Below are positions 1,709-16,043 of a stretch of 41,258 nucleotides of DNA, piece after piece. Position numbers and translations under genes: made by a program. The stretch spans positions 1 to 41,258 of the IMG/VR virus record IMGVR_UViG_3300023174_004058. One strand, 5' to 3'. Below the pieces are notes generated by a model. It was not told where the DNA came from. It did not search any database and saw only the letters and a program-made list of their open reading frames with translations. Numbering within the stretch: position 1 is the stretch's first letter; every line of letters begins with the position of its first letter. Source of the stretch: a virus.

Positions 1709-2695
1709 ATGCTTAACATCCTTGCTTACTTACCTGTAAAAAAGAAACCCACACCCTCAGGTTGGTTGAGTTTCAATGCAGTGTGCTGTCAGCACACAGG
1801 TGGCACACAGGATCGACGTGGACGTGGCGGACTCAAAGCCACTGATCAGGGCTGGAGTTATCATTGTTTCAATTGCTCATACACAGCCAGTTTTATTCTG
1901 GGCCGTACCGTAAGTTATAAAGCCCGAAAGCTTTTGGGATGGTTGGGGGTGCCAGAAACAGAAATAGAGATGCTGAATTTGGAAAGTCTGCGGCATCGAA
2001 GCATACATGGAATCATACAAGATCGACAACAAACATGGAATACCCTAGCAGGCATCACATTTGAAGAAAGAGACTTGCCACCATATGCTGAATTACTAAC
2101 ACCTGAGCATGAACCATATTGGGAATATATGCGTGGCAGACATGTGCCCAAAGACTTTCCTGCCATGGTACAGATAGAAAATGACGGCGTTCATTGGATT
2201 CGGCCACATGTGGTCATACCTTTCACACACGATGACAAGATTGTGGGATACACCTGTAGATTCTTAGACAACCGCCAGCCCAAGTTCATCAGCGACAGTC
2301 AGCCAGGCTATGTGTTTGGTGTAGATTTACAGCCAGCAGATTGGCAACATGTGATTGTGACAGAAGGCATATTCGATGCGCTCAGCATAGGTGGTGTGGC
2401 AGTGATGCACAACACCATAAGTGATGCACAAGCAAGACTGATACGCAGTTTAGGAAAAGAGATCACAGTGGTGCCGGACCAAGACCGTGCAGGCGTTGAA
2501 CTCGTTGACCGTGCTGTGGAACTGGGATGGGCAGTGAGCGTACCAGAATGGCCTGCAGGCTGCAAAGACGTCAACGATGCAGTGATTAAGTTGGGACGAC
2601 TGGGTGCCTTGCTAACTATAATGCAATCAAGAGAGACCAGTAGAATCAAAATTGAGTTAAGGAAGAAAGCACTTGTTAAAAGATTACAGCACTGA
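1709..2695 (+). CDS. DNA primase, T4 gp61-like
   Basis: This makes RNA primers for lagging-strand synthesis together with the helicase encoded next. A zinc-ribbon is visible at the N-terminus (C26/C27, H29, then C53-x2-C56). A TOPRIM domain follows, with V-T-E-G-I-F-D-A-L-S (metal-binding E219) and P-D-Q-D-R-A-G (D257 and D259). The length of 328 residues is close to T4 gp61 (342). The stop codon lies inside the start region of the helicase gene (23-base overlap), which suggests translational coupling and fits the known primase-helicase complex. No good ribosome-binding site precedes the ATG; a weak TTGCAT/TAAACT promoter-like pair ends only a few bases upstream, so the start is less certain than the product. 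Confidence 0.9.
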   Translation: MLNILAYLPVKKKPTPSGWLSFNAVCCQHTGGTQDRRGRGGLKATDQGWSYHCFNCSYTASFILGRTVSYKARKLLGWLGVPETEIEMLNLESLRHRSIHGIIQDRQQTWNTLAGITFEERDLPPYAELLTPEHEPYWEYMRGRHVPKDFPAMVQIENDGVHWIRPHVVIPFTHDDKIVGYTCRFLDNRQPKFISDSQPGYVFGVDLQPADWQHVIVTEGIFDALSIGGVAVMHNTISDAQARLIRSLGKEITVVPDQDRAGVELVDRAVELGWAVSVPEWPAGCKDVNDAVIKLGRLGALLTIMQSRETSRIKIELRKKALVKRLQH

Positions 2696-4094
2696 CGTGC
2701 AACGATTATTTTTAGAAATGATGTTGGAAGATGCACAGAGCTATGTGCGTGTGCAGAACATCTACAATCCTCAAAACTTTGACAAGAGTCTACGACCCGC
2801 GGCCGAGTTTATCAAAGAACATTCAGACAAACACAAAACCTTGCCTGACCGCACACAGATTAGTGCCACCACAGGCATCAAATTACAAGCAGTACCTGAT
2901 CTAAATGAAGGTCACTTTGACTGGTTCATGGGTGAGTTTGAAAGTTTTACCAAGCGCCAAGAACTGGAACGTGCTATTCTCAAAGCCGCAGACATGCTGG
3001 AAAAGGGTGACTTTGAGCCAGTGGAGAAGCTGATCAAAGACGCAGTACAGATAAGTTTGACCAAGGACATGGGCACAGACTACTTCAGTGATCCCAAGGC
3101 ACGTATTGAAAAGTATTTCAACTCAGGCGGGCAAGTGTCAACAGGTTGGCCGCAACTGGACAGATTATTGTATGGTGGTTTCAGTCGTGGTGAACTCAAC
3201 ATCTTTGCCGGTGGATCGGGTTCAGGCAAGTCACTAGTAATGATGAACATTGCCTTGAACTGGTTACAACAAGGACTCAGTGGTGTGTACATCACCCTGG
3301 AACTGAGTGAAGAACTAACGTCATTGCGAACAGATGCCATGCTGACCAACATGAGCACCAAGGACATTCGCAAAGACATAGACACAACAGAACTCAAGGT
3401 CAAACTGGTGGCCAAAAAGTCCGGCAACTATCAGGTCAAAGGCTTGCCAGCACAGAGCAATATCAACGACATACGTGCATACTTGAAAGAGTATCAGATA
3501 CAAACAGGCAAGCGTGTGGACTTTGTGATGATTGACTATCTGGACTTGCTGATGCCGGTGAGTGCAAAAGTATCACCCAATGACTTGTTTGTGAAGGACA
3601 AGTATGTGAGTGAAGAACTGCGTAACTTGGCCAAAGAATTGGGATTTTTGATGGTAACTGCGTCACAGTTGAATCGATCAGCTGTGGAAGAGATTGAATT
3701 TGATCACAGTCATATATCAGGTGGTATATCTAAAATCAACACAGCGGATAATGTGTTTGGTATCTTCACAAGTCGCGCCATGAAAGAGCGTGGCAAGTAT
3801 CAGATACAGTGTATGAAGTCTCGAAGCTCGACCGGCGTTGGTCAAAAAATTGATTTGGAGTACAACATTGAAACAATGCGCATTACTGATGAAGGCGGAG
3901 AAGATGGAGACACATATTCAAAGAAACCATCTTCTTCAATCATGGACTCAATCAAGGCCCGCAGTCAAGTTAGCTCGGCTGGAGATGAAAAAGACACACC
4001 TCCATGGGACAGTGCGGAACCAGCCGCAAAAGTCACAGCAGACGTTCAAAGTGCAAAACTAAAGCAGCTATTAGGAAAGATCAAAACTGGATGA
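2673..4094 (+). CDS. Replicative DNA helicase, DnaB/T4 gp41-like
   Basis: This is the hexameric 5'-3' helicase that opens the fork. The 473-residue length matches T4 gp41 (475). An N-terminal helical domain is followed by a RecA-type core with Walker A A-G-G-S-G-S-G-K-S (residues 179-187), Walker B V-M-I-D-Y-L-D (D288), a DnaB-like T-A-S-Q-L-N-R sensor segment, and an arginine-rich S-R-S-S-T-G-V-G-Q segment near the end. The last 60 residues are acidic and low-complexity. Translation probably starts at TTG 2673, since GGAAG lies seven bases upstream; no ATG fits as well. The gene overlaps the primase before it and shares ATGA with the oxygenase after it. Confidence 0.92.
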   Translation: MLKDYSTDVQRLFLEMMLEDAQSYVRVQNIYNPQNFDKSLRPAAEFIKEHSDKHKTLPDRTQISATTGIKLQAVPDLNEGHFDWFMGEFESFTKRQELERAILKAADMLEKGDFEPVEKLIKDAVQISLTKDMGTDYFSDPKARIEKYFNSGGQVSTGWPQLDRLLYGGFSRGELNIFAGGSGSGKSLVMMNIALNWLQQGLSGVYITLELSEELTSLRTDAMLTNMSTKDIRKDIDTTELKVKLVAKKSGNYQVKGLPAQSNINDIRAYLKEYQIQTGKRVDFVMIDYLDLLMPVSAKVSPNDLFVKDKYVSEELRNLAKELGFLMVTASQLNRSAVEEIEFDHSHISGGISKINTADNVFGIFTSRAMKERGKYQIQCMKSRSSTGVGQKIDLEYNIETMRITDEGGEDGDTYSKKPSSSIMDSIKARSQVSSAGDEKDTPPWDSAEPAAKVTADVQSAKLKQLLGKIKTG

Positions 4095-4603
4095 TGAAAC
4101 AAAGTGCAATAGACCATGCGGTAATGCTACGACCAGATTTGTATAGCATTAAAAATTTGTTTGAACCAGATGCATTAAGCGAATTGTTAAACAAATTAAA
4201 CGTAGAAACCAATTGGCAACTTCAAGAAAATCAAGAATTCCTTCCTCGACGAACTTTGTCCTGGCTTACTGACGGAGTATTAGACGAAGTATGGTGCATG
4301 CTAAACACACTTGATTTTTCAAGATTTAAATTGAAATTTCTCAATGTCTCTATATGGAAAGACCTTCCAGGGTATTGTATTAGTCCACACACAGATAATG
4401 ACAGAATAAAAGCAGCCATGCAAATATATCTAAACGATTTGCCCAAAGAACTTGGTACGTGGTTTGAAGAAACAGAAATACCATATGGTCAGAATTCTGG
4501 GTATATCATGAACAATCAATATCGGCCAAAACATGGAATGAAACATCCAGTTCCTGATGGGGTTGTTCGATATAGTCTCTATGCAAAATTTGATTATGTA
4601 TAA
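4091..4603 (+). CDS. 2-oxoglutarate/Fe(II)-dependent oxygenase
   Basis: This is a 170-residue protein of the 2OG-Fe(II) dioxygenase (cupin) superfamily, which hydroxylates proteins, nucleic acids or small molecules. The iron ligands appear as H100-T-D102 and H148, and the 2-oxoglutarate-binding arginine as R160 in V-V-R-Y-S-L-Y. An open frame extends back to 4004, but the start is placed at ATG 4091 (or 4094) because it forms an ATGA overlap with the helicase stop. Its end overlaps the next gene by 8 bases, so oxygenase and radical SAM enzyme are probably made together. It is clearly more AT-rich than the helicase. The substrate is unknown. Confidence 0.8.
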   Translation: MMKQSAIDHAVMLRPDLYSIKNLFEPDALSELLNKLNVETNWQLQENQEFLPRRTLSWLTDGVLDEVWCMLNTLDFSRFKLKFLNVSIWKDLPGYCISPHTDNDRIKAAMQIYLNDLPKELGTWFEETEIPYGQNSGYIMNNQYRPKHGMKHPVPDGVVRYSLYAKFDYV

Positions 4604-5594
4604 TATACAAGATATTGTCCACCTACATTTAGAAATTTCCAGCAAATGCAATGCTGAATGCCCGTTGTGTCCACGAAATTTTTACGGATATCCCTACAAT
4701 GATGGATACATTGAGCACAACATGAGTTTATCAGAAGCTCAACATATTTTTCAACCAAAATTTTTAAAACAGTTAACCGAGATAGATATTAATGGCAATT
4801 TTGGTGATTCTGTAATGAATCCCGACACTGTTGAGATCATTAAGTATTTTAGTGAATATTCATCTGCAACAATTTTCATGAGTACTAATGCTGGTGCCAG
4901 AGATAAAGAATACTGGCAAAGTCTAGCACAATTAGATGTGCAGGTAACTTTTTGTATTGATGGTCTTGAGGATACTCATCATCTATACAGAAAAAACACC
5001 CAGTACTCTACGGTGATAAAAAATGCAAAAACTTTTATTGCCGCTGGCGGTCATGCTACATGGAAAATGATCAAGTTTGATCATAATCAACATGAATTTG
5101 AATCAGCTGAAAAATTAAGTCAACAGCTAGGGTTTCAAGCATTTGGAATTGCTGATAATGGACGCAATCAAGCGCCAGTATTTGACAAACAACAAAAATT
5201 AACACACGTGATTGGTCAACCGGTCAATGTGAATTTTGATAGGTTGTGGCGCTCACGCACCACAGATGAAGTTTTATTGGAAGACATTGTACAGCATCGT
5301 AATCCAAAACCAATACAATGTCAAGTAAAAAACGATCGATCGTTGTATGTATGCAGTACTGGGGATGTTTATCCTTGTTGTTTTTTAGGATTTAATCCTA
5401 AGTCCTACGGCCACGGAAACTATCATGCTGCCGCTAATGCACAATTTAAACATATGGTTCAAGAAAACAATGCATTGAAGCACAGCTTAGAACATTGTAT
5501 CAATTGGTTTGATGGTATTGTGCAATCATGGAATCAGCCCACATTTGAACAAGGTAGGCTGGTAATCTGTAATGACAATTGTGGATGTGATTAA
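4596..5594 (+). CDS. Radical SAM enzyme with SPASM/twitch-like C-terminus, copy 1
   Basis: This 332-residue protein has the radical SAM cluster motif C18-x3-C22-x2-C25 at its N-terminus, directly followed by C-P-R-N-F-Y-G-Y-P-Y-N. The C-terminal part carries more cysteines (a lone C, then G-D-V-Y-P-C-C, then a Cys-rich tail C-x4-C-x-C), as in SPASM/twitch domains that hold an auxiliary Fe-S cluster. It is a clear paralogue of the protein at 15087-16043, with the radical SAM cysteines at identical positions. ATG 4596 is preferred because alignment with that paralogue begins there; the frame is open to 4557. Substrate unknown. It overlaps the oxygenase upstream by 8 bases and the convergent fibre gene by 4. 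Confidence 0.85.
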   Translation: MYNIQDIVHLHLEISSKCNAECPLCPRNFYGYPYNDGYIEHNMSLSEAQHIFQPKFLKQLTEIDINGNFGDSVMNPDTVEIIKYFSEYSSATIFMSTNAGARDKEYWQSLAQLDVQVTFCIDGLEDTHHLYRKNTQYSTVIKNAKTFIAAGGHATWKMIKFDHNQHEFESAEKLSQQLGFQAFGIADNGRNQAPVFDKQQKLTHVIGQPVNVNFDRLWRSRTTDEVLLEDIVQHRNPKPIQCQVKNDRSLYVCSTGDVYPCCFLGFNPKSYGHGNYHAAANAQFKHMVQENNALKHSLEHCINWFDGIVQSWNQPTFEQGRLVICNDNCGCD

Positions 5595-6841: not shown

Positions 6842-7090
6842 ATGCAAAAGAAGACTAAAAGTATATTGGAAGAACTGGACAGCTTGTACATCGAGCGTGA
6901 TCGTCAATCGGTGATCGAAACTCGTGCCAGTAATTTGATTGAAACAGCCATTCGTTTGATGGAACAAATCGACGCCGAATACAGCCCTGAGCAAGCAGAA
7001 AATCTGCAACGCAAATTGCTCAATGCAATCCGTCATCGTGACACTGGCAAGTTCTCAAGGTCTGTCAGGAGAACACATGCAGATCTTTGA
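6842..7090 (+). CDS. Small helical hypothetical protein, 82 aa
   Basis: I do not recognise the family. The first 65 residues are charged and predicted helical or coiled-coil by composition (many Glu, Lys, Arg, Leu), ending in a basic tail. It stands first in a tight run with the genes at 7077 and 7973 and overlaps the next one by 14 bases. A TAAATA late-type element 20 bases upstream suggests late expression and a possible role in the virion or its assembly. Confidence 0.6.
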   Translation: MQKKTKSILEELDSLYIERDRQSVIETRASNLIETAIRLMEQIDAEYSPEQAENLQRKLLNAIRHRDTGKFSRSVRRTHADL

Positions 7091-7976
7091 AATTACCACA
7101 CACCAGCCCGTAACTGAAATCTCTTTTAAAGACATCGGCCGCTCAGTGGGCAAAGCACTTATACAAGCACCAGTCAAAGCACTGGGCAACAAGGTTGGTG
7201 CTGATCTAATAGGAGATGAAAAAACCAAATCTGCCACTGAACTGATGTACGACATGCAAAAATATTTTGGCATTGCAACGCAACAGTTGTATCGAGGCAT
7301 GCCTGAACATATTATCATGTCAGAATTAATAGGCAAGCACGGTGCCAGTCAGGAACAAGCAAAAAAAGCACTAGAAGCCGCACAACAACAACTTCAGCCA
7401 GGTTCCCAAGCAATTTCTCAACCTGATTCTCAAGCAGGGTCTCAAGCATTTGGAACAATGGCAAATCAGTTGAGTCAAGCAGGTGCAACACCTGCGGCCA
7501 CTACTACACCACCAGCACCAGCGCCTGCACCAGCATCCACAACACCATCAGCACCACAAAGTCCTGAAGAAATTAGAAAAGCCAAGCAGGCAGTTGCTAC
7601 CCAGGCTGCACAAAAAAATATGACGGCTAATTCTACACCTGTTCCTGTTGCACCAACATCAACATCTGTAGCAACAACCCCAAATTATAGCGCAGCCACC
7701 GGACCCGGAGTGCGACCGCAAACAAGTGTATCTCCATCTTCAATCACTGGAACTTCTGCAGTACCTGGTCAACAAAAATCTGTGCCCGTACCAAACTATG
7801 CGTTAGGTGTGGGACCTGGAGTAAAGCCACAAATGACCGCAACTCCTAAAATTAAAGCACCTACTGCTACTACGGTTCCTGCAAAACAAAAATCAGTGGC
7901 CGTAGCAGAATCTCTGGTTTGGAGCCAAACCTTTGACCCCAGTAGAACATTATTGAAAAAAATTAAACAACTATGA
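7077..7976 (+). CDS. Pro/Ala/Thr-rich hypothetical protein, 299 aa
   Basis: The N-terminal 110 residues look folded and end in a helical segment (about 90-105) that contains a Glu/Ala/Lys-rich stretch before a Gln/Ala repeat. From about residue 125 the chain is low-complexity (Pro, Ala, Thr, Ser), with two related segments, 'PNYSAATGPGVRPQTS' and 'PNYALGVGPGVKPQMT'. ATG 7077 is preferred over 7023 because CAGGAGAA lies just upstream. It overlaps the preceding gene by 14 bases and shares ATGA with the next. The composition fits a disordered structural or internal virion protein; function unknown. Confidence 0.65.
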   Translation: MQIFEITTHQPVTEISFKDIGRSVGKALIQAPVKALGNKVGADLIGDEKTKSATELMYDMQKYFGIATQQLYRGMPEHIIMSELIGKHGASQEQAKKALEAAQQQLQPGSQAISQPDSQAGSQAFGTMANQLSQAGATPAATTTPPAPAPAPASTTPSAPQSPEEIRKAKQAVATQAAQKNMTANSTPVPVAPTSTSVATTPNYSAATGPGVRPQTSVSPSSITGTSAVPGQQKSVPVPNYALGVGPGVKPQMTATPKIKAPTATTVPAKQKSVAVAESLVWSQTFDPSRTLLKKIKQL

Positions 7977-9895
7977 AAAGCCTACGCACACTCTTAGAAG
8001 GCGGCAATGTATTCAAAGATGCAGATGGGCAGCCACTCACAGTCCGTATCAATCAAAGCGATGTGCCTGCCACTGTGGCCTGGATTGAACAGCTCACAGG
8101 CTTGCAATTTCCACGTGATCGTTGGCTGGGTTCAACTGGCAAAGCGGCCACATCAGGCGACATGGACCTTGCTGTGGACACCAGTGAAATGACCAAGGAC
8201 CAACTGGCGGCCAAGCTCATGCAGTGGATTGCCAGTCACAAACTGCCGCCGGCAGAGTGGATCAAAAAAGGCGGCGAAGTTCACTTGCGCACACCCATAC
8301 AAGGACGCCCTGAACTGGGCTATGTGCAAACAGACTTTATGTTTTTTCCCAATTTGGATTGGGGCACATTTTTCTACTCCGGCGGCGAAGGTTCAGCATA
8401 CAAAGGCATGAACCGAAATGTGTTAATGAGCAGCATTGCCAAACAACTGGGACTCAAAGTGGGAGCCAATGGCATGTTTAGCCGTGCCACAAATCAGCTG
8501 GTGGATGGAGGCATGGATCCTGACCATGTGGCACAGGTGTTGCTGGGCCGTGGGCGCACAAAGAATGATCTCAAAAATGTAGAAAGCATTTTTGCTGCCC
8601 TGGCCCGAGATCAAGACAAAGAAGCCAAAGTCAAAGACTTTCGTGACTACCTGAACAAAGAAGGCCTGCAACAACCTGATGCTGTGACAGAAGACACAGA
8701 CACCTACTTCCTGGCACGTCTGCGTGATAGAATTGTCAACCAAGGCATGCAGCCCTTGGTCGAACGTGAAAGCGCCAATCCCTATGTGATCTACGAAGCT
8801 GAAGAAGCTGGTGTGGGTGGCCGTGCCAAGGGTATTGAACACCTGGAAGACTATGTGTTCCGTAATGGGTTGCCGGGTGTGACCCAGGCCTTGCAAATTG
8901 TGGCAGCGGCCGCTGATGCTCCGGCCAAGACCACCACTGTGAAATGGGACGGTAAGCCTGCTGTGATATTTGGACGCAAACCTGAAACTGGCGAATTTGT
9001 ACTCACAGACGGATCAGGCTTTGAAGCCAAGGGTTACGATGGTCTAGCCACAAGTCCACGCATGATGGCCGACATACAAGGCACACGCTCGGGTTCTCGA
9101 GGTGAACTTATTCAATTGTATGCCACACTGTGGCCCAAGCTGGAAGCAGCCTTGCCCACAAACTTCCGTGGTTATGTCAAAGGCGACTTGTTGTACATGT
9201 CAACACCACCTCTAGAAGCTGGCAACTATGTGTTCAAGCCCAATACTGTGCAGTACAGAATTCCAGCCAAGACTACTTTGGGCCAAAGAATAGGTGCCAG
9301 TGACACAGGCATTGCCATGCACTCCATGTATGCAGATGCAGGTGATGCACGACAACCACTCAGTGGTGTGCGCTTCAATGACGTGCCTGGCCTGTTGTTG
9401 ATTGAACCCATTGGCGGCAAAGAAATTGTGCCTGACGCTGCCTTGATCAAGCAGATTAAATCTGTGGCCAACAGTGGGGATGGCCGTGCTATTGCCACCT
9501 TGTTCAACCCTGCAGAACTTCGAGCACAGCAGATCACAGATCTTGCAAAACTGTGCGTGGACTACATCAACTATAGAATCAAAACCAGTGGCGACTTTGA
9601 CAACTTGTTGCCTGGTTTTGGCGACTGGCTGCAGACCAAGGTTACCCCCAAGAAATTTGGCAACATTGTGGAATATCTAAACAGCCCGGCCAGCAACGCA
9701 GGTGCATTGGCAGCGGCATTTACCTTGTTCTTGTTGTTGCACGATTTAAAGCTGGACGTTCTGCGCCAGCTGGATCTGAAGGATCCTGGGCACGAAGGCT
9801 GGGTCATGGCCACTGATGCAGGCTACGCCAAAGCTGTCAATAGATTTGATTTTACCGCTAGAAATGCGGCCCAAAACAATCCGCCAGCCGGCTGA
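7973..9895 (+). CDS. Pol-beta-type nucleotidyltransferase fused to a ligase-like domain, 640 aa
   Basis: Two catalytic-looking domains lie in one chain. Residues about 25-140 carry the Pol-beta nucleotidyltransferase signature: G53-S54, then D63-M-D65, then a third acidic residue at D121 in V-Q-T-D-F-M. Residues about 300-500 resemble the covalent nucleotidyltransferase (DNA/RNA ligase and capping) fold: K324-W-D-G-K-P (motif I, the adenylated lysine), a motif-III-like V-K-G-D405-L-L-Y, and a motif-IV-like G-L-L-L-I-E478. I recall related phage proteins with a K-W-D-G segment classed as unknown function (DUF6267-like). RNA or DNA end repair is possible. It follows the Pro-rich gene by an ATGA overlap. 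The domain reading is from motifs by eye. Confidence 0.7.
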   Translation: MKSLRTLLEGGNVFKDADGQPLTVRINQSDVPATVAWIEQLTGLQFPRDRWLGSTGKAATSGDMDLAVDTSEMTKDQLAAKLMQWIASHKLPPAEWIKKGGEVHLRTPIQGRPELGYVQTDFMFFPNLDWGTFFYSGGEGSAYKGMNRNVLMSSIAKQLGLKVGANGMFSRATNQLVDGGMDPDHVAQVLLGRGRTKNDLKNVESIFAALARDQDKEAKVKDFRDYLNKEGLQQPDAVTEDTDTYFLARLRDRIVNQGMQPLVERESANPYVIYEAEEAGVGGRAKGIEHLEDYVFRNGLPGVTQALQIVAAAADAPAKTTTVKWDGKPAVIFGRKPETGEFVLTDGSGFEAKGYDGLATSPRMMADIQGTRSGSRGELIQLYATLWPKLEAALPTNFRGYVKGDLLYMSTPPLEAGNYVFKPNTVQYRIPAKTTLGQRIGASDTGIAMHSMYADAGDARQPLSGVRFNDVPGLLLIEPIGGKEIVPDAALIKQIKSVANSGDGRAIATLFNPAELRAQQITDLAKLCVDYINYRIKTSGDFDNLLPGFGDWLQTKVTPKKFGNIVEYLNSPASNAGALAAAFTLFLLLHDLKLDVLRQLDLKDPGHEGWVMATDAGYAKAVNRFDFTARNAAQNNPPAG

Positions 9896-9909
9896 TTTTT
9901 TCCCAAAAG

Positions 9910-9917
9910 ACTAAATA
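9910..9917 (+). promoter_or_regulatory. Late-promoter-like ACTAAATA
   Basis: ACTAAATA sits 42 bases upstream of the ATG at 9960 in a 64-base gap. A strong AAAGGA ribosome-binding site follows. Together with the terminator at 10391 it delimits a single-gene late unit. Confidence 0.55.
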
Positions 9918-9959
9918 AAAGCAGGTCCAACAAGACCACTTAACCTAAAGGAAAAAATC

Positions 9960-11146: not shown

Positions 11147-11595
11147 CCCGTGATCAAAAATTAGAACGCTTTGCTGAACGTGAACTCAAACGTGTGTACA
11201 CTGAACTGATCATTGACGATGAACAAGGTGGATACGTGGCGTTTGGGCGTTATCATGTAAAACCTGAACCAGCAGGATTTGCTGTGTATCACAGTGATGA
11301 TCTTGTGAGCACATTCAGCAGTAAACGAACTGCCATGTCATGGTGTGTGGCAGATCACTTGCAACAGTACCGCCTGGCACAAAACATCCGCATACTAGAC
11401 AACAAAAAACAAACACTCACAGCTGATATCCATTGCCGTCGCGGGCAAGCAGATACTAGCAACAGACCTGAATTCCGTGAAATGGTGCGTACCAAACTTG
11501 CACCCAAAATTGAGAACCTTACACTGCTGAATCAAGAACTTGAAAAATGTTTAAATTCGGCTAAATATCTACAACTAAGAGGATTTGCCAAATGA
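11143..11595 (+). CDS. Hypothetical protein, 150 aa
   Basis: I do not recognise the family. The N-terminal 70 residues look like a small mixed alpha/beta domain with Y-V-A-F-G-R-Y-H-V and S-T-F-S-S-K-R-T-A-M-S-W-C segments. The last 80 residues are helical and charged. It overlaps both neighbours by ATGA, so it belongs to the same translation unit as the XhlA-like gene and the gene at 11592. I recall similar small proteins beside structural genes of T4-like marine phages, but cannot name it. Confidence 0.6.
   Translation: MTRDQKLERFAERELKRVYTELIIDDEQGGYVAFGRYHVKPEPAGFAVYHSDDLVSTFSSKRTAMSWCVADHLQQYRLAQNIRILDNKKQTLTADIHCRRGQADTSNRPEFREMVRTKLAPKIENLTLLNQELEKCLNSAKYLQLRGFAK
11560..11567 (+). promoter_or_regulatory. 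Late-promoter-like GCTAAATA
   Basis: GCTAAATA lies 24 bases before the ATG at 11592, inside the end of the preceding gene, with TAAGAGGA as ribosome-binding site between. The same octamer precedes the tailspike gene at 17897. Confidence 0.5.
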
Positions 11596-12512
11596 AATTA
11601 ACCGAACTGGCCACACCAAAAAAGAGCCGTCAAGTGACCCGAGTATTTGAAAGCTACTTTGGCACCAAGATGCCTGTGAACAAGCTCACAGTGCGCGAAG
11701 CACAGGTCATGCTGAAACGTGTGCGTGGTGTGATAGCTGAACATCAACGTAGCACAAGCCGTCACACCAGTGAACGCAACCCTGCTTACTTGAAATTGGT
11801 CATGATGGAACAGGCACTGGCTCATCGTGTGAGTGAAGACATGGTGCCGCCAGCAGGTGCTGCAATGAAACCCGGCACACAGCCAACAGGCCAAGTGGCA
11901 GCTGATCCAGCAGCCGCTGCCAAGCTCAAGGCAGCAAAAGACAAACTGGCAAAAGGCCAACAACCTTCGCCTGAAGAACAAGAACTAATCAATGCGCAGG
12001 CTACGTTGACTGCCGAAAGCCGTTTGCGTAGAGCATACCAATTGTTGAAAGAATCAGAAGTTCAACAAGCACAAGTGGTGTTGGCTGCACAAGACATGGT
12101 AGACAAAATGCAATCAATGCTGGAAGACACTACAGAGATGCAATTCAAAGAACTGCCTGCTCTAGTAGATTCGATCCGCAATCAAATTGGCATGGAACAA
12201 GCCACACAATTCAACACTGATGTCACTGGGGCATTGCAAGGTCTTGTGCAAAATTTACAAGGTGCCAAGCAACAACTGGAAACAGCACTGGGTGTGGTCA
12301 CCGGTCAACCTGCCGCACTCGACACCAGCATGGCTGCCAGTGGCATGCCGGGTGCTGCTCCAGCCCCTATGCCAGGTGCCGAAGCTGGCGCTGAATTAGG
12401 CGCTGAATTAGGCGCAGAAGTCGGTGCTGATGTTGGTGCAGACATGGGTGCTGAAATGGGTGCTGAAGAACCTGCACCAGCCGGAGCCGCACTGGGCCGA
12501 GCACGTAGATAA
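11592..12512 (+). CDS. Putative internal, scaffold or structural protein with a Gly-Ala-Glu repeat tail, 306 aa
   Basis: The N-terminal 75 residues are basic and helical (T-P-K-K-S-R-Q-V-T-R-V-F-E-S-Y-F), the middle is a long helical or coiled-coil region with an Ala/Pro/Lys linker near 90-130, and the end (about 255-300) is a Gly-Ala-Glu/Asp repeat of the form G-A-E-L-G-A-E-V-G-A-D. Such composition fits a virion assembly or internal head protein but is not proof. It has a late-type GCTAAATA element and a TAAGAGGA ribosome-binding site. It overlaps the gene before (ATGA) and the gene after (TAATG). Confidence 0.65.
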   Translation: MKLTELATPKKSRQVTRVFESYFGTKMPVNKLTVREAQVMLKRVRGVIAEHQRSTSRHTSERNPAYLKLVMMEQALAHRVSEDMVPPAGAAMKPGTQPTGQVAADPAAAAKLKAAKDKLAKGQQPSPEEQELINAQATLTAESRLRRAYQLLKESEVQQAQVVLAAQDMVDKMQSMLEDTTEMQFKELPALVDSIRNQIGMEQATQFNTDVTGALQGLVQNLQGAKQQLETALGVVTGQPAALDTSMAASGMPGAAPAPMPGAEAGAELGAELGAEVGADVGADMGAEMGAEEPAPAGAALGRARR

Positions 12513-12874: not shown

Positions 12875-12903
12875 TTGACATCTATCAGTAAATACGCTAT
12901 AAT
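12875..12903 (+). promoter_or_regulatory. Perfect-consensus sigma70 promoter for iscU
   Basis: TTGACA at 12875-12880 and TATAAT at 12898-12903 are separated by exactly 17 bp: 12 of 12 consensus positions with the optimal spacer. The ATG of iscU follows 17 bases later with a GAAGGA ribosome-binding site. The spacer also contains AGTAAATA (12887-12894), like the late elements elsewhere. Host RNA polymerase should read this strongly at infection onset. Confidence 0.9.
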
Positions 12904-12919
12904 CAGCGAAGGAAATCAC

Positions 12920-13291
12920 ATGGCTTATTCAGAAAAAGTAATTGATCATTATGAAAACCCACGCAACGTGGGCAAGTTTGAAATTGACGACACTGTGGGC
13001 ACCGGCATGGTAGGAGCACCGGCCTGCGGCGACGTGATGAAATTGCAAATCAAAGTTGAAAACGGAATTATTGTAGATGCCAGATTCAAAACATACGGGT
13101 GCGGAAGTGCCATTGCCTCATCCTCTCTTGTTACCGAGTGGGTTAAAGGACGAACGCTTGACGAGGCCTCAGCTCTTAAAAATTCAGAGATTGCTCAAGA
13201 ACTCGCACTGCCACCAGTCAAGATTCATTGTTCTATTCTTGCTGAAGATGCTATAAAAGCCGCAGTGGAAGATTATCGAAAGAAACACTAG
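12920..13291 (+). CDS. iscU: Fe-S cluster scaffold protein IscU
   Basis: IscU is the scaffold on which the cysteine desulfurase IscS builds [2Fe-2S] clusters. All three cluster cysteines are present: C36 in P-A-C-G-D (with D38), C61 in Y-G-C-G-S, and C104 in K-I-H-C-S. The L-P-P-V-K motif (97-101), recognised by the chaperone HscA, directly precedes the last cysteine. At 123 residues it matches bacterial IscU (about 128). ATG 12920 is chosen over 12875 because it has GAAGGA upstream, matches family N-termini (M-A-Y-S-E-K-V-I-D-H-Y), and the longer version would lie within the promoter. No iscS, hscA, hscB or ferredoxin gene is visible, so it probably works with the host's system. It opens a run ending with iscA. 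Confidence 0.95.
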   Translation: MAYSEKVIDHYENPRNVGKFEIDDTVGTGMVGAPACGDVMKLQIKVENGIIVDARFKTYGCGSAIASSSLVTEWVKGRTLDEASALKNSEIAQELALPPVKIHCSILAEDAIKAAVEDYRKKH

Positions 13292-15086: not shown

Positions 15087-16043
15087 ATGTTTGAAGTCAG
15101 TGAAATTAGACATATCCATCTGGAATTAAGTTCTCTGTGCAATGCCAGATGTCCACAATGTCCTAGAAACTTTTATGGGTATCCCTACAACGCTGGATAC
15201 AAAGAAGTCAATTTGTCTTTGTCTCATTTGCAGACCATACTGCCAGTTCAAGTTGTTGCTCAATTGGATGAAGTTGAAATCAATGGCAATTATGGTGATT
15301 TTGTAATGAATCCTGAAAGCATTGATATTATATCATGGTTTAGAACAATCAACAAAAAAATGAAAATAATTATCAGTACCAATGGAGGTGCTCGAGATAG
15401 GAATTTTTGGCAACAGTTGGCAAAATTAGATGCAAGGGTTTGTTTTTGCATTGATGGGTTAGAAGACACACATCACCTGTATCGCCAAGACACCACGTAC
15501 CAACAAGTGATTAAAAATGCAAAAATATACATTGATGCTGGCGGGCAAGCAGTGTGGCACATGATTGAGTTTGATCACAATTGCCATCAAATTGATGAAG
15601 CAAAACAACGATCAAAAAAATTAAATTTTATGCATTTTGCGCTTAGGTCAACTGGTAGAAACAGCGGTCCAGTATATGATCGGCAAGGGCAACAAGTGTT
15701 CGCACTGGGAAATACAAATTACAACATGCCTGACACAATAGATGATGCATTTATTGAAAACATATACCGGCCGCGTAGATTAAAAACGTATCTGTCAGAC
15801 ACACCTAAAAATATCATGTGTGAAGCCAAGGAAAATAAATCAATTTTTATCTCATCAGAAGGAATAGTAAAACCCTGTTGCTATCTTGCACTTGACAACA
15901 CCGTGCCGTATTTTTATTCTGGTACAAAAGAGTTGGATTATTTTGAATCCGTCGAGAAGTCAGTTGCTCTGTTTAAAAACATCAATGAAACTTTTGACAC
16001 TGACAAACAGTTGGTTGCCTGTCAACAGTTTTGCAGTAAATAA
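15087..16043 (+). CDS. Radical SAM enzyme with SPASM/twitch-like C-terminus, copy 2
   Basis: This is a paralogue of the protein at 4596-5594. The radical SAM cysteines are again C18, C22 and C25, followed by C-P-R-N-F-Y-G-Y-P-Y-N, and similarity continues through 'EINGNYGDFVMNPES' and 'CFCIDGLEDTHHLYR'. The C-terminal domain has I-M-C, then G-I-V-K-P-C-C-Y-L-A, then C-x3-C, consistent with an auxiliary Fe-S cluster. The second Cys after the first lone C in copy 1 is replaced by Ser here. An ATTAAATA element lies 25 bases upstream at 15055. It belongs to the iscU-iscA run and, like its neighbours, is AT-rich. Confidence 0.87.
   Translation: MFEVSEIRHIHLELSSLCNARCPQCPRNFYGYPYNAGYKEVNLSLSHLQTILPVQVVAQLDEVEINGNYGDFVMNPESIDIISWFRTINKKMKIIISTNGGARDRNFWQQLAKLDARVCFCIDGLEDTHHLYRQDTTYQQVIKNAKIYIDAGGQAVWHMIEFDHNCHQIDEAKQRSKKLNFMHFALRSTGRNSGPVYDRQGQQVFALGNTNYNMPDTIDDAFIENIYRPRRLKTYLSDTPKNIMCEAKENKSIFISSEGIVKPCCYLALDNTVPYFYSGTKELDYFESVEKSVALFKNINETFDTDKQLVACQQFCSK

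What the first reader, a model, noticed from the sequence alone, without database searches (positions are those of the whole stretch)
7973..9895. One protein joins a Pol-beta nucleotidyltransferase with a ligase-like domain
G-S...D-M-D...D (residues 53-121) and K-W-D-G...V-K-G-D...L-L-I-E (324-478) are complete-looking active sites of two different nucleotidyl-transfer folds in one 640-residue chain. That suits a repair enzyme that adds nucleotides and seals an end, for example on tRNA or phage RNA cut by host defences. It lies in a virion-type gene block, which is unexpected for such an enzyme and may mean it is packaged.
Basis: partly seen in the sequence, partly recalled or inferred. Interest (0 to 1): 0.68.

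Follow-up and report, generated by a model that had tools for sequence, protein, structure and literature searches.

The report
Phage nucleotidyltransferase fused to ligase-like DUF6267
A phage protein joins two kinds of nucleic-acid enzyme, one that probably adds nucleotides and one that probably seals broken ends; hundreds of other phages encode the same pair fused or as neighbouring genes, and the sealing half is the previously unassigned family DUF6267.

Summary
The 640-residue ORF is real and under strong purifying selection. Its C-terminal half (288-631) is Pfam DUF6267, function unknown. Its N-terminal half matches no described family. In 77 diverse relatives the N-half keeps an invariant Pol-beta-type signature (G53, D63, D65, D121). 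In 91 relatives the C-half keeps ligase motifs I (K324-x-D-G), IV (E608-G-x-V) and V (K620-x-V-x-R). DUF6267 is linked by profile comparison to a second phage ligase family that hits Pfam RNA_ligase. The halves form a conserved phage module: of 80 loci found with the N-half alone, 53 have a DUF6267 gene just downstream and 15 are fused; of 15 loci found with the second ligase family, 14 have the N-half gene downstream. One fusion has the reverse order; two include a third (HIGH-type) nucleotidyltransferase. Relatives of the window also carry an ordinary DNA ligase, so this ligase is an extra one, most likely for RNA end repair (inferred). Several T4-like cyanophages have DUF6267 as their only detected ligase-like protein. 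Virion packaging is plausible for some relatives, not shown here.

The parts
7973..9895 (+). The fused gene, 640 aa: Pol-beta-like nucleotidyltransferase + DUF6267 ligase-like domain
   Evidence: dN/dS
7973..7999 (+). Short N-terminal leader MKSLRTLLE before the conserved GGNVFK; ends in L-x-E, like a prohead-protease site; function unproven
   Evidence: alignments
8000..8662 (+). Nucleotidyltransferase domain, residues 10-230
   Evidence: 77 relatives; no Pfam family
8129..8134 (+). G53-S54 (hG[ST] motif)
8159..8167 (+). D63-x-D65 metal-binding motif
   Evidence: 77/77
8333..8335 (+). D121, third acidic residue (VQxDxM)
   Evidence: 77/77
8663..8830 (+). Linker, residues 231-286, variable in length between relatives
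8831..9892 (+). DUF6267 (PF19782) domain, residues 287-640, ligase-like
   Evidence: E 2.3e-26; link to RNA ligases
8840..8851 (+). H290-L-E-D293, invariant family signature (also in the second ligase family as PHFED)
8942..8953 (+). Motif I, K324-W-D-G327, predicted nucleotide-accepting lysine
   Evidence: 91/91
9185..9187 (+). D405, probable motif III position
   Evidence: 91/91
9233..9256 (+). F421-x-P-N-x-x-x-Y428, invariant F, P and Y; PN-x-[IV]-x-Y also in the second ligase family
9320..9322 (+). H450, invariant, possible motif IIIa position
   Evidence: 91/91
9395..9406 (+).
   Evidence: E in 18 of 91
9794..9805 (+). Motif IV, E608-G-W-V611
   Evidence: E and G 91/91
9830..9844 (+). Motif V, K620-A-V-N-R624
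   Evidence: K and R 91/91
7023..7976 (+). Upstream Ala/Pro/Thr-rich ORF overlapping the gene start by 4 bases; no family except a weak baseplate-hub match
1709..2695 (+). DNA primase (context)
   Evidence: phrog_47, E 1.6e-31
2673..4094 (+). DnaB-like replicative helicase (context)
   Evidence: phrog_19, E 5e-71

Best explanation
The protein is a two-headed nucleotidyl-transfer enzyme. The N-terminal domain is a Pol-beta-type nucleotidyltransferase (three invariant Asp for metal-ion catalysis) that adds one or a few nucleotides to an end. The C-terminal DUF6267 domain is a ligase-superfamily enzyme that takes a nucleotide on K324 and passes it to a 5'-phosphate before sealing. Together they restore and reseal broken strands, most likely host or phage RNA cut by host defences. 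Supported by sequence data: the invariant motifs, the homology of DUF6267 to a second ligase-like phage family and of that family to RNA ligases, and the conserved pairing of the two genes. Inferred: both catalytic activities, the order of steps, and RNA rather than DNA as substrate. I put about 0.85 on the two-enzyme assignment and about 0.5 on RNA end repair as its use.
For: Invariant motifs in 77 N-half and 91 C-half relatives. Purifying selection in both halves. An N-half query finds 80 loci: 53 with a DUF6267 gene downstream, 15 fused. A query with the neighbouring ligases of Phosso, Atu_ph07 and phi30-2 finds 15 loci, 14 with the NTase gene downstream. Reverse-order fusion L282; the tree needs at least 4 fused/split changes. 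HMM of 90 DUF6267 sequences hits the second ligase family as top hits, best E 2.5e-6. hhalign: DUF6267 to that family P 8.4e-6, best of 40 column shuffles 0.098; that family to RNA_ligase P 4.4e-5, best shuffle 0.15; to DNA ligase P 0.14. 6 of 15 members of that family hit RNA_ligase PF09414 (best 1.1e-3) and 6 hit DUF6267. Nine records with the nucleotidyltransferase (fused or stand-alone) carry a separate ATP DNA ligase, E 1e-19 to 1e-23. The RlaP-ligase concept in jumbo phages is published (PMC7824862).
Against: No direct profile match of DUF6267 to known ligases (P 0.08 for RNA ligases); the link runs through an intermediate family. The N-half has no significant match to any known nucleotidyltransferase family (best P 0.005 against NTP_transf_2 sequences, best of 40 shuffles 0.007). 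No kinase or phosphatase needed to prepare RNA ends was looked for. The gene lies next to replication genes. T4-like cyanophages keep DUF6267 without this nucleotidyltransferase.
Confidence: 0.55

Rival explanations
1. A DNA-end repair or genome-maintenance enzyme: the nucleotidyltransferase fills or tails DNA ends and the ligase seals DNA, as bacterial LigD does by joining a polymerase and a ligase.
For: The gene and its relatives sit near primase and helicase genes (contexts). Cyanophages P-TIM40, syn9, P-SSM2 and Melnitz lack known DNA ligases, and g30 is reported missing in cyanomyoviruses (PMC2984593), so DUF6267 could be their ligase.
Against: Relatives of the window, other split-gene phages, phi30-2 and S-CRM01 have a separate ATP DNA ligase; Phosso and Atu_ph07 have an NAD ligase. 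The linking family is closer to RNA ligase than DNA ligase.
Confidence: 0.2
2. A nucleotide-tagging or cofactor pathway: the domains transfer nucleotides to a protein, a small molecule or an RNA 5' end rather than repairing breaks, with the HIGH-type nucleotidyltransferase as third step.
For: Two fusions contain a HIGH-type domain and 65 of 80 cyanophage-type DUF6267 loci have such a gene beside DUF6267. Ligase-fold enzymes include capping enzymes (general knowledge).
Against: No HIGH-type gene near the module in 149 loci of the window's clade or in the window. The linking family resembles RNA ligases.
Confidence: 0.15
3. The domains are degenerate and the protein is structural or regulatory.
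For: A virion-structural-like gene lies downstream (11592-12512).
Against: Predicted catalytic residues are invariant across all sequences examined; dN/dS about 0.05-0.1.
Confidence: 0.03

Closest known systems
[quoted passage not shown]
   Same: A Pol-beta-type nucleotidyltransferase working beside an RNA ligase; predicted to restore lost nucleotides before sealing
   Different: No detectable sequence kinship of this nucleotidyltransferase to RlaP; here the partner is DUF6267, often fused
RNA ligase family PF09414 (includes T4 RNA ligase 2)
   Same: KxDG, EGxV and motif V lysine; the intermediate family hits PF09414
   Different: DUF6267 itself has no direct significant match; motif V is K-x-V-(D/N)-R and the probable motif III has Asp
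Pfam DUF6267 (PF19782), T4-GC 71 of T4-like cyanophages, PHROG 455
   Same: The C-terminal half is a member
   Different: Cyanophage versions stand alone, without this nucleotidyltransferase, usually next to a HIGH-type nucleotidyltransferase
LigD and similar polymerase-ligase fusions (from memory)
   Same: Nucleotide-adding and sealing domains in one chain
   Different: Different polymerase family and ligase family; no nuclease domain

Membership tests
DUF6267 (PF19782) | Match over the curated Pfam cut-off | tested here: met
   93.5 bits against cut-off 27, residues 288-631
Ligase superfamily (covalent nucleotidyltransferases) | Motif I KxDG with nucleophilic lysine | tested here: met
   K324, D326, G327 in 91/91; nucleophile role inferred
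Ligase superfamily (covalent nucleotidyltransferases) | Motif IV EGxV and motif V lysine near the C-terminus of the catalytic core | tested here: met
   E608, G609, K620 in 91/91
Ligase superfamily (covalent nucleotidyltransferases) | Sequence-profile or structural match to known members | tested here: inconclusive
Ligase superfamily (covalent nucleotidyltransferases) | Covalent lysyl-NMP formation | not testable with these tools
   Needs biochemistry
Pol-beta nucleotidyltransferase superfamily | hG[GS] motif followed by DxD and a third acidic residue | tested here: met
   G53, D63, D65, D121 in 77/77; position 54 S in 53 and T in 24 of 78
Pol-beta nucleotidyltransferase superfamily | Profile or fold match to known members | tested here: inconclusive
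   Aligned at the right motif but P 0.005, shuffles reach 0.007
RlaP (PF10127) | Match to the RlaP model | tested here: not met
   No match in 33 members scanned; hhalign P 0.42 and 0.23
RlaP (PF10127) | Genomic association with RNA ligases | tested here: met
   As an analogy only: neighbour or fusion with ligase-like genes
ATP-dependent DNA ligase (PF01068) | Match to the catalytic-domain model | tested here: not met
   No PF01068 match in the protein; second ligase family to DNA ligase P 0.14
T4-type internal head protein | Capsid-targeting leader of about 10 residues cleaved after L/I-x-E | tested here: inconclusive
   Window leader MKSLRTLLE ends in L-x-E but many close relatives have only about 5 leader residues; leader pattern 2 of 370 genes in its clade

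The most novel reading that the evidence does not exclude
A phage-specific, modular end-repair machine of up to three nucleotidyl-transfer enzymes (Pol-beta-type, DUF6267 ligase, HIGH-type), split or fused in several orders and in some lineages loaded into the capsid so that it acts on entry; and DUF6267 is the missing ligase of T4-like cyanophages.
Probability: 0.2. Interest if true: 0.82.

Novelty: new variant of a known kind. Interest (0 to 1): 0.6.

Why it matters
It proposes a function for DUF6267, found in hundreds of phage records including most sampled T4-like cyanophages, where it is the only ligase-like protein detected in several complete genomes reported to lack a DNA ligase. It also defines a nucleotidyltransferase family absent from Pfam that travels with ligases across freshwater, marine and huge phages. 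Lysine-adenylation and ligation assays on one small protein would test it directly.

Tried and rejected
LLIE as motif IV: rejected by conservation. DUF6267 as the only DNA ligase in the window's lineage: rejected, as relatives carry PF01068. RlaP membership: not met. PDB sequence searches gave no meaningful hit. Papers: DUF6267 is not mentioned in the library. A first hhalign run was spoiled by a reverse-order fusion left in the DUF6267 alignment, then redone. NTase in cellular genomes: one MAG contig in 84,980 species genomes, from a single-pattern scan. PF01467 across whole records was uninformative because it is common.

Full report
WHAT IS THERE. The ORF at 7973-9895 (+) encodes 640 residues. 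Residues 288-631 match Pfam DUF6267, a family of unknown function (E 2.3e-26) and PHROG 455, also unknown. The N-terminal 230 residues match nothing in Pfam even at E 10. The window is a 41-kb virus record. Close relatives (75-95% identical over the full length) are common in IMG/VR, on contigs up to 225 kb. Substitutions between the window and relatives are strongly synonymous in both halves: dN/dS about 0.05-0.1.

ACTIVE-SITE MOTIFS. In an alignment of 124 sequences (77 covering the N-half, 91 the C-half) G53, D63, D65, D121, G145 and R148 are invariant in the N-half, position 54 is Ser or Thr, and H290, E292, D293, K324, D326, G327, G334, D405, F421, P423, Y428, H450, E608, G609, K620 and R624 are invariant in the C-half. 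The first set is the Pol-beta-type hG[ST]...DxD...D signature. The second contains ligase motif I (KxDG), motif IV (EGxV) and motif V (KxVxR). Motif names beyond I, IV and V are my assignment by position.

IS DUF6267 A LIGASE? Direct comparison to known ligases is not significant (P 0.08), but an intermediate family closes the gap. In Sinorhizobium phage Phosso, Agrobacterium phage Atu_ph07 and Pseudomonas phage phi30-2 the stand-alone nucleotidyltransferase is next to, or within three genes of, a protein with EKxDG, EGxV and K(I/V)V(D) motifs. Fifteen members of this second family were collected. Six of them hit Pfam RNA_ligase (best 1.1e-3) and six hit DUF6267 (best 2.4e-3). An HMM of 90 DUF6267 sequences finds them as its top hits (best 2.5e-6). 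hhalign gives P 8.4e-6 for DUF6267 against this family and 4.4e-5 for this family against RNA ligases; the best of 40 column-shuffled controls were 0.098 and 0.15; the positive control RNA ligase against DNA ligase gave 3.7e-3; this family against DNA ligase gave 0.14. The homology is therefore well supported; catalytic activity is inferred.

THE N-HALF. The motif evidence is strong but no known family is recognised. Against NTP_transf_2 sequences the alignment falls on the right motif with P 0.005, which one of 40 shuffles nearly reaches (0.007); against RlaP it is 0.23 while the control NTP_transf_2 against RlaP is 1e-4. I treat 'Pol-beta-like' as likely, not proven.

DO THE TWO ALWAYS OCCUR TOGETHER? 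A scan with the nucleotidyltransferase alone returned 80 diverse loci: 15 fused to DUF6267, 53 with a separate DUF6267 gene close downstream on the same strand, 12 with none in the locus. Of those 12 records, mostly short fragments, one has DUF6267 elsewhere. A scan with the second ligase family returned 15 loci, 14 with the nucleotidyltransferase downstream; one of the 14 is Atu_ph07 itself. L282 is fused in reverse order, DUF6267 first. On a tree of 76 nucleotidyltransferase domains, fused against split needs at least four changes and the switch of ligase partner one. The reverse does not hold: five complete phage records (cyanophages and Melnitz) with DUF6267 have no recognisable copy of this nucleotidyltransferase (that search had no positive control in it). 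Loci counts include near-duplicates and the scans are capped and pattern-based.

A THIRD PARTNER. L297 joins a HIGH/cytidylyltransferase-like domain, the nucleotidyltransferase and DUF6267; L267 (cut by the contig end) joins nucleotidyltransferase, DUF6267 and a HIGH-type domain (Pfam CTP_transf_like E 0.037 and 0.0024, weak, but the GxFxPxHxxH-type motif is clear). In 65 of 80 cyanophage-type loci a HIGH-type gene lies beside or near DUF6267. None was seen in 149 loci of the window's clade.

DNA OR RNA? All five records of the window's clade searched, and four with stand-alone nucleotidyltransferase genes, carry a separate ATP DNA ligase, so the fused protein is an additional ligase. Together with the closer link to RNA ligases this favours RNA ends. 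In contrast P-TIM40, syn9, P-SSM2, Melnitz and two marine contigs have no PF01068, PF01653 or PF09414 match. Published reviews state that T4 g30 homologues are not found in cyanomyoviruses (PMC2984593) and that the related jumbo subgroup lacks any known DNA ligase (PMC7824862). DUF6267 is a candidate for that gap; S-CRM01 has both.

PACKAGING. T4 internal proteins are targeted to the head by about ten N-terminal residues, cleaved after L/I-x-E (PMC9026906). In the split-gene loci 47 of 409 genes begin with a similar leader (3 after shuffling), including DUF6267 genes (MRAFEFLTE-A...), and 34 of 461 in cyanophage-type loci (5), including the HIGH-type neighbour (MKFIEFLKE-A...). That cyanophage enzyme is reported in virions (PMC3037559; PMC10665884). 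In the window's clade only 2 of 370 genes match (1), and the leader before GGNVFK is often only five residues, so packaging of this protein remains open.

COMPARISON WITH THE KNOWN. Functionally the nearest idea is RlaP plus ATP-grasp RNA ligase, predicted to restore nucleotides lost to host RNases before sealing (PMC7824862). The window protein works like that pair but its nucleotidyltransferase fails the RlaP membership test, and DUF6267 had no assigned function in Pfam or in the papers searched.

LIMITS. All enzymatic statements are inferences from sequence.

Noticed in passing
L153:7983-9173, L156:5944-6906, L157:6076-6888, L151:7956-9212: Cyanophage and Melnitz DUF6267 (T4-GC 71 in P-SSM2) keeps the ligase motifs in phages with no recognised DNA or RNA ligase; candidate for their missing ligase.
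   Followed up: partly
L297:3344-5788 and L267:3814-6006: Three-domain fusions of HIGH-type nucleotidyltransferase, Pol-beta-like nucleotidyltransferase and DUF6267 in two different orders.
   Followed up: partly
L242-L279 neighbours, e.g. L255, L259, L248: Many neighbouring genes start with a T4-like capsid-targeting leader (MRAKEFILE, MRAFEFLTE): 47 of 409 genes against 3 after shuffling.
   Followed up: partly
L289:4723-5658, L249:4717-5901: Further nucleotidyltransferase-like genes (EGGW...GSTTYY...GDIDV; RGSLANYNYTPYSDFDLH) next to the main one, without a convincing Pfam match.
   Followed up: no
L376:5962-6945 and 8458-9927: The only hit in cellular genomes, a Methylophilaceae MAG contig, has a divergent copy and a second gene with weak Pol-beta palm and LAGLIDADG matches; possibly phage DNA in the bin.
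   Followed up: no
L448:3767-6238: The second ligase family embedded in an 824-residue ORF without the nucleotidyltransferase nearby.
   Followed up: no
window 12875-13291: Phage gene for a NifU-like Fe-S assembly protein (PHROG 8429, E 2.4e-43).
   Followed up: no
window 4557-5594 and 15087-16043: Two radical SAM genes of the same PHROG (21308) in one window.
   Followed up: no
L159:4857-5825: A divergent copy of the nucleotidyltransferase in the Prevotella Lak megaphage; no ligase gene recognised within 5 kb.
   Followed up: partly
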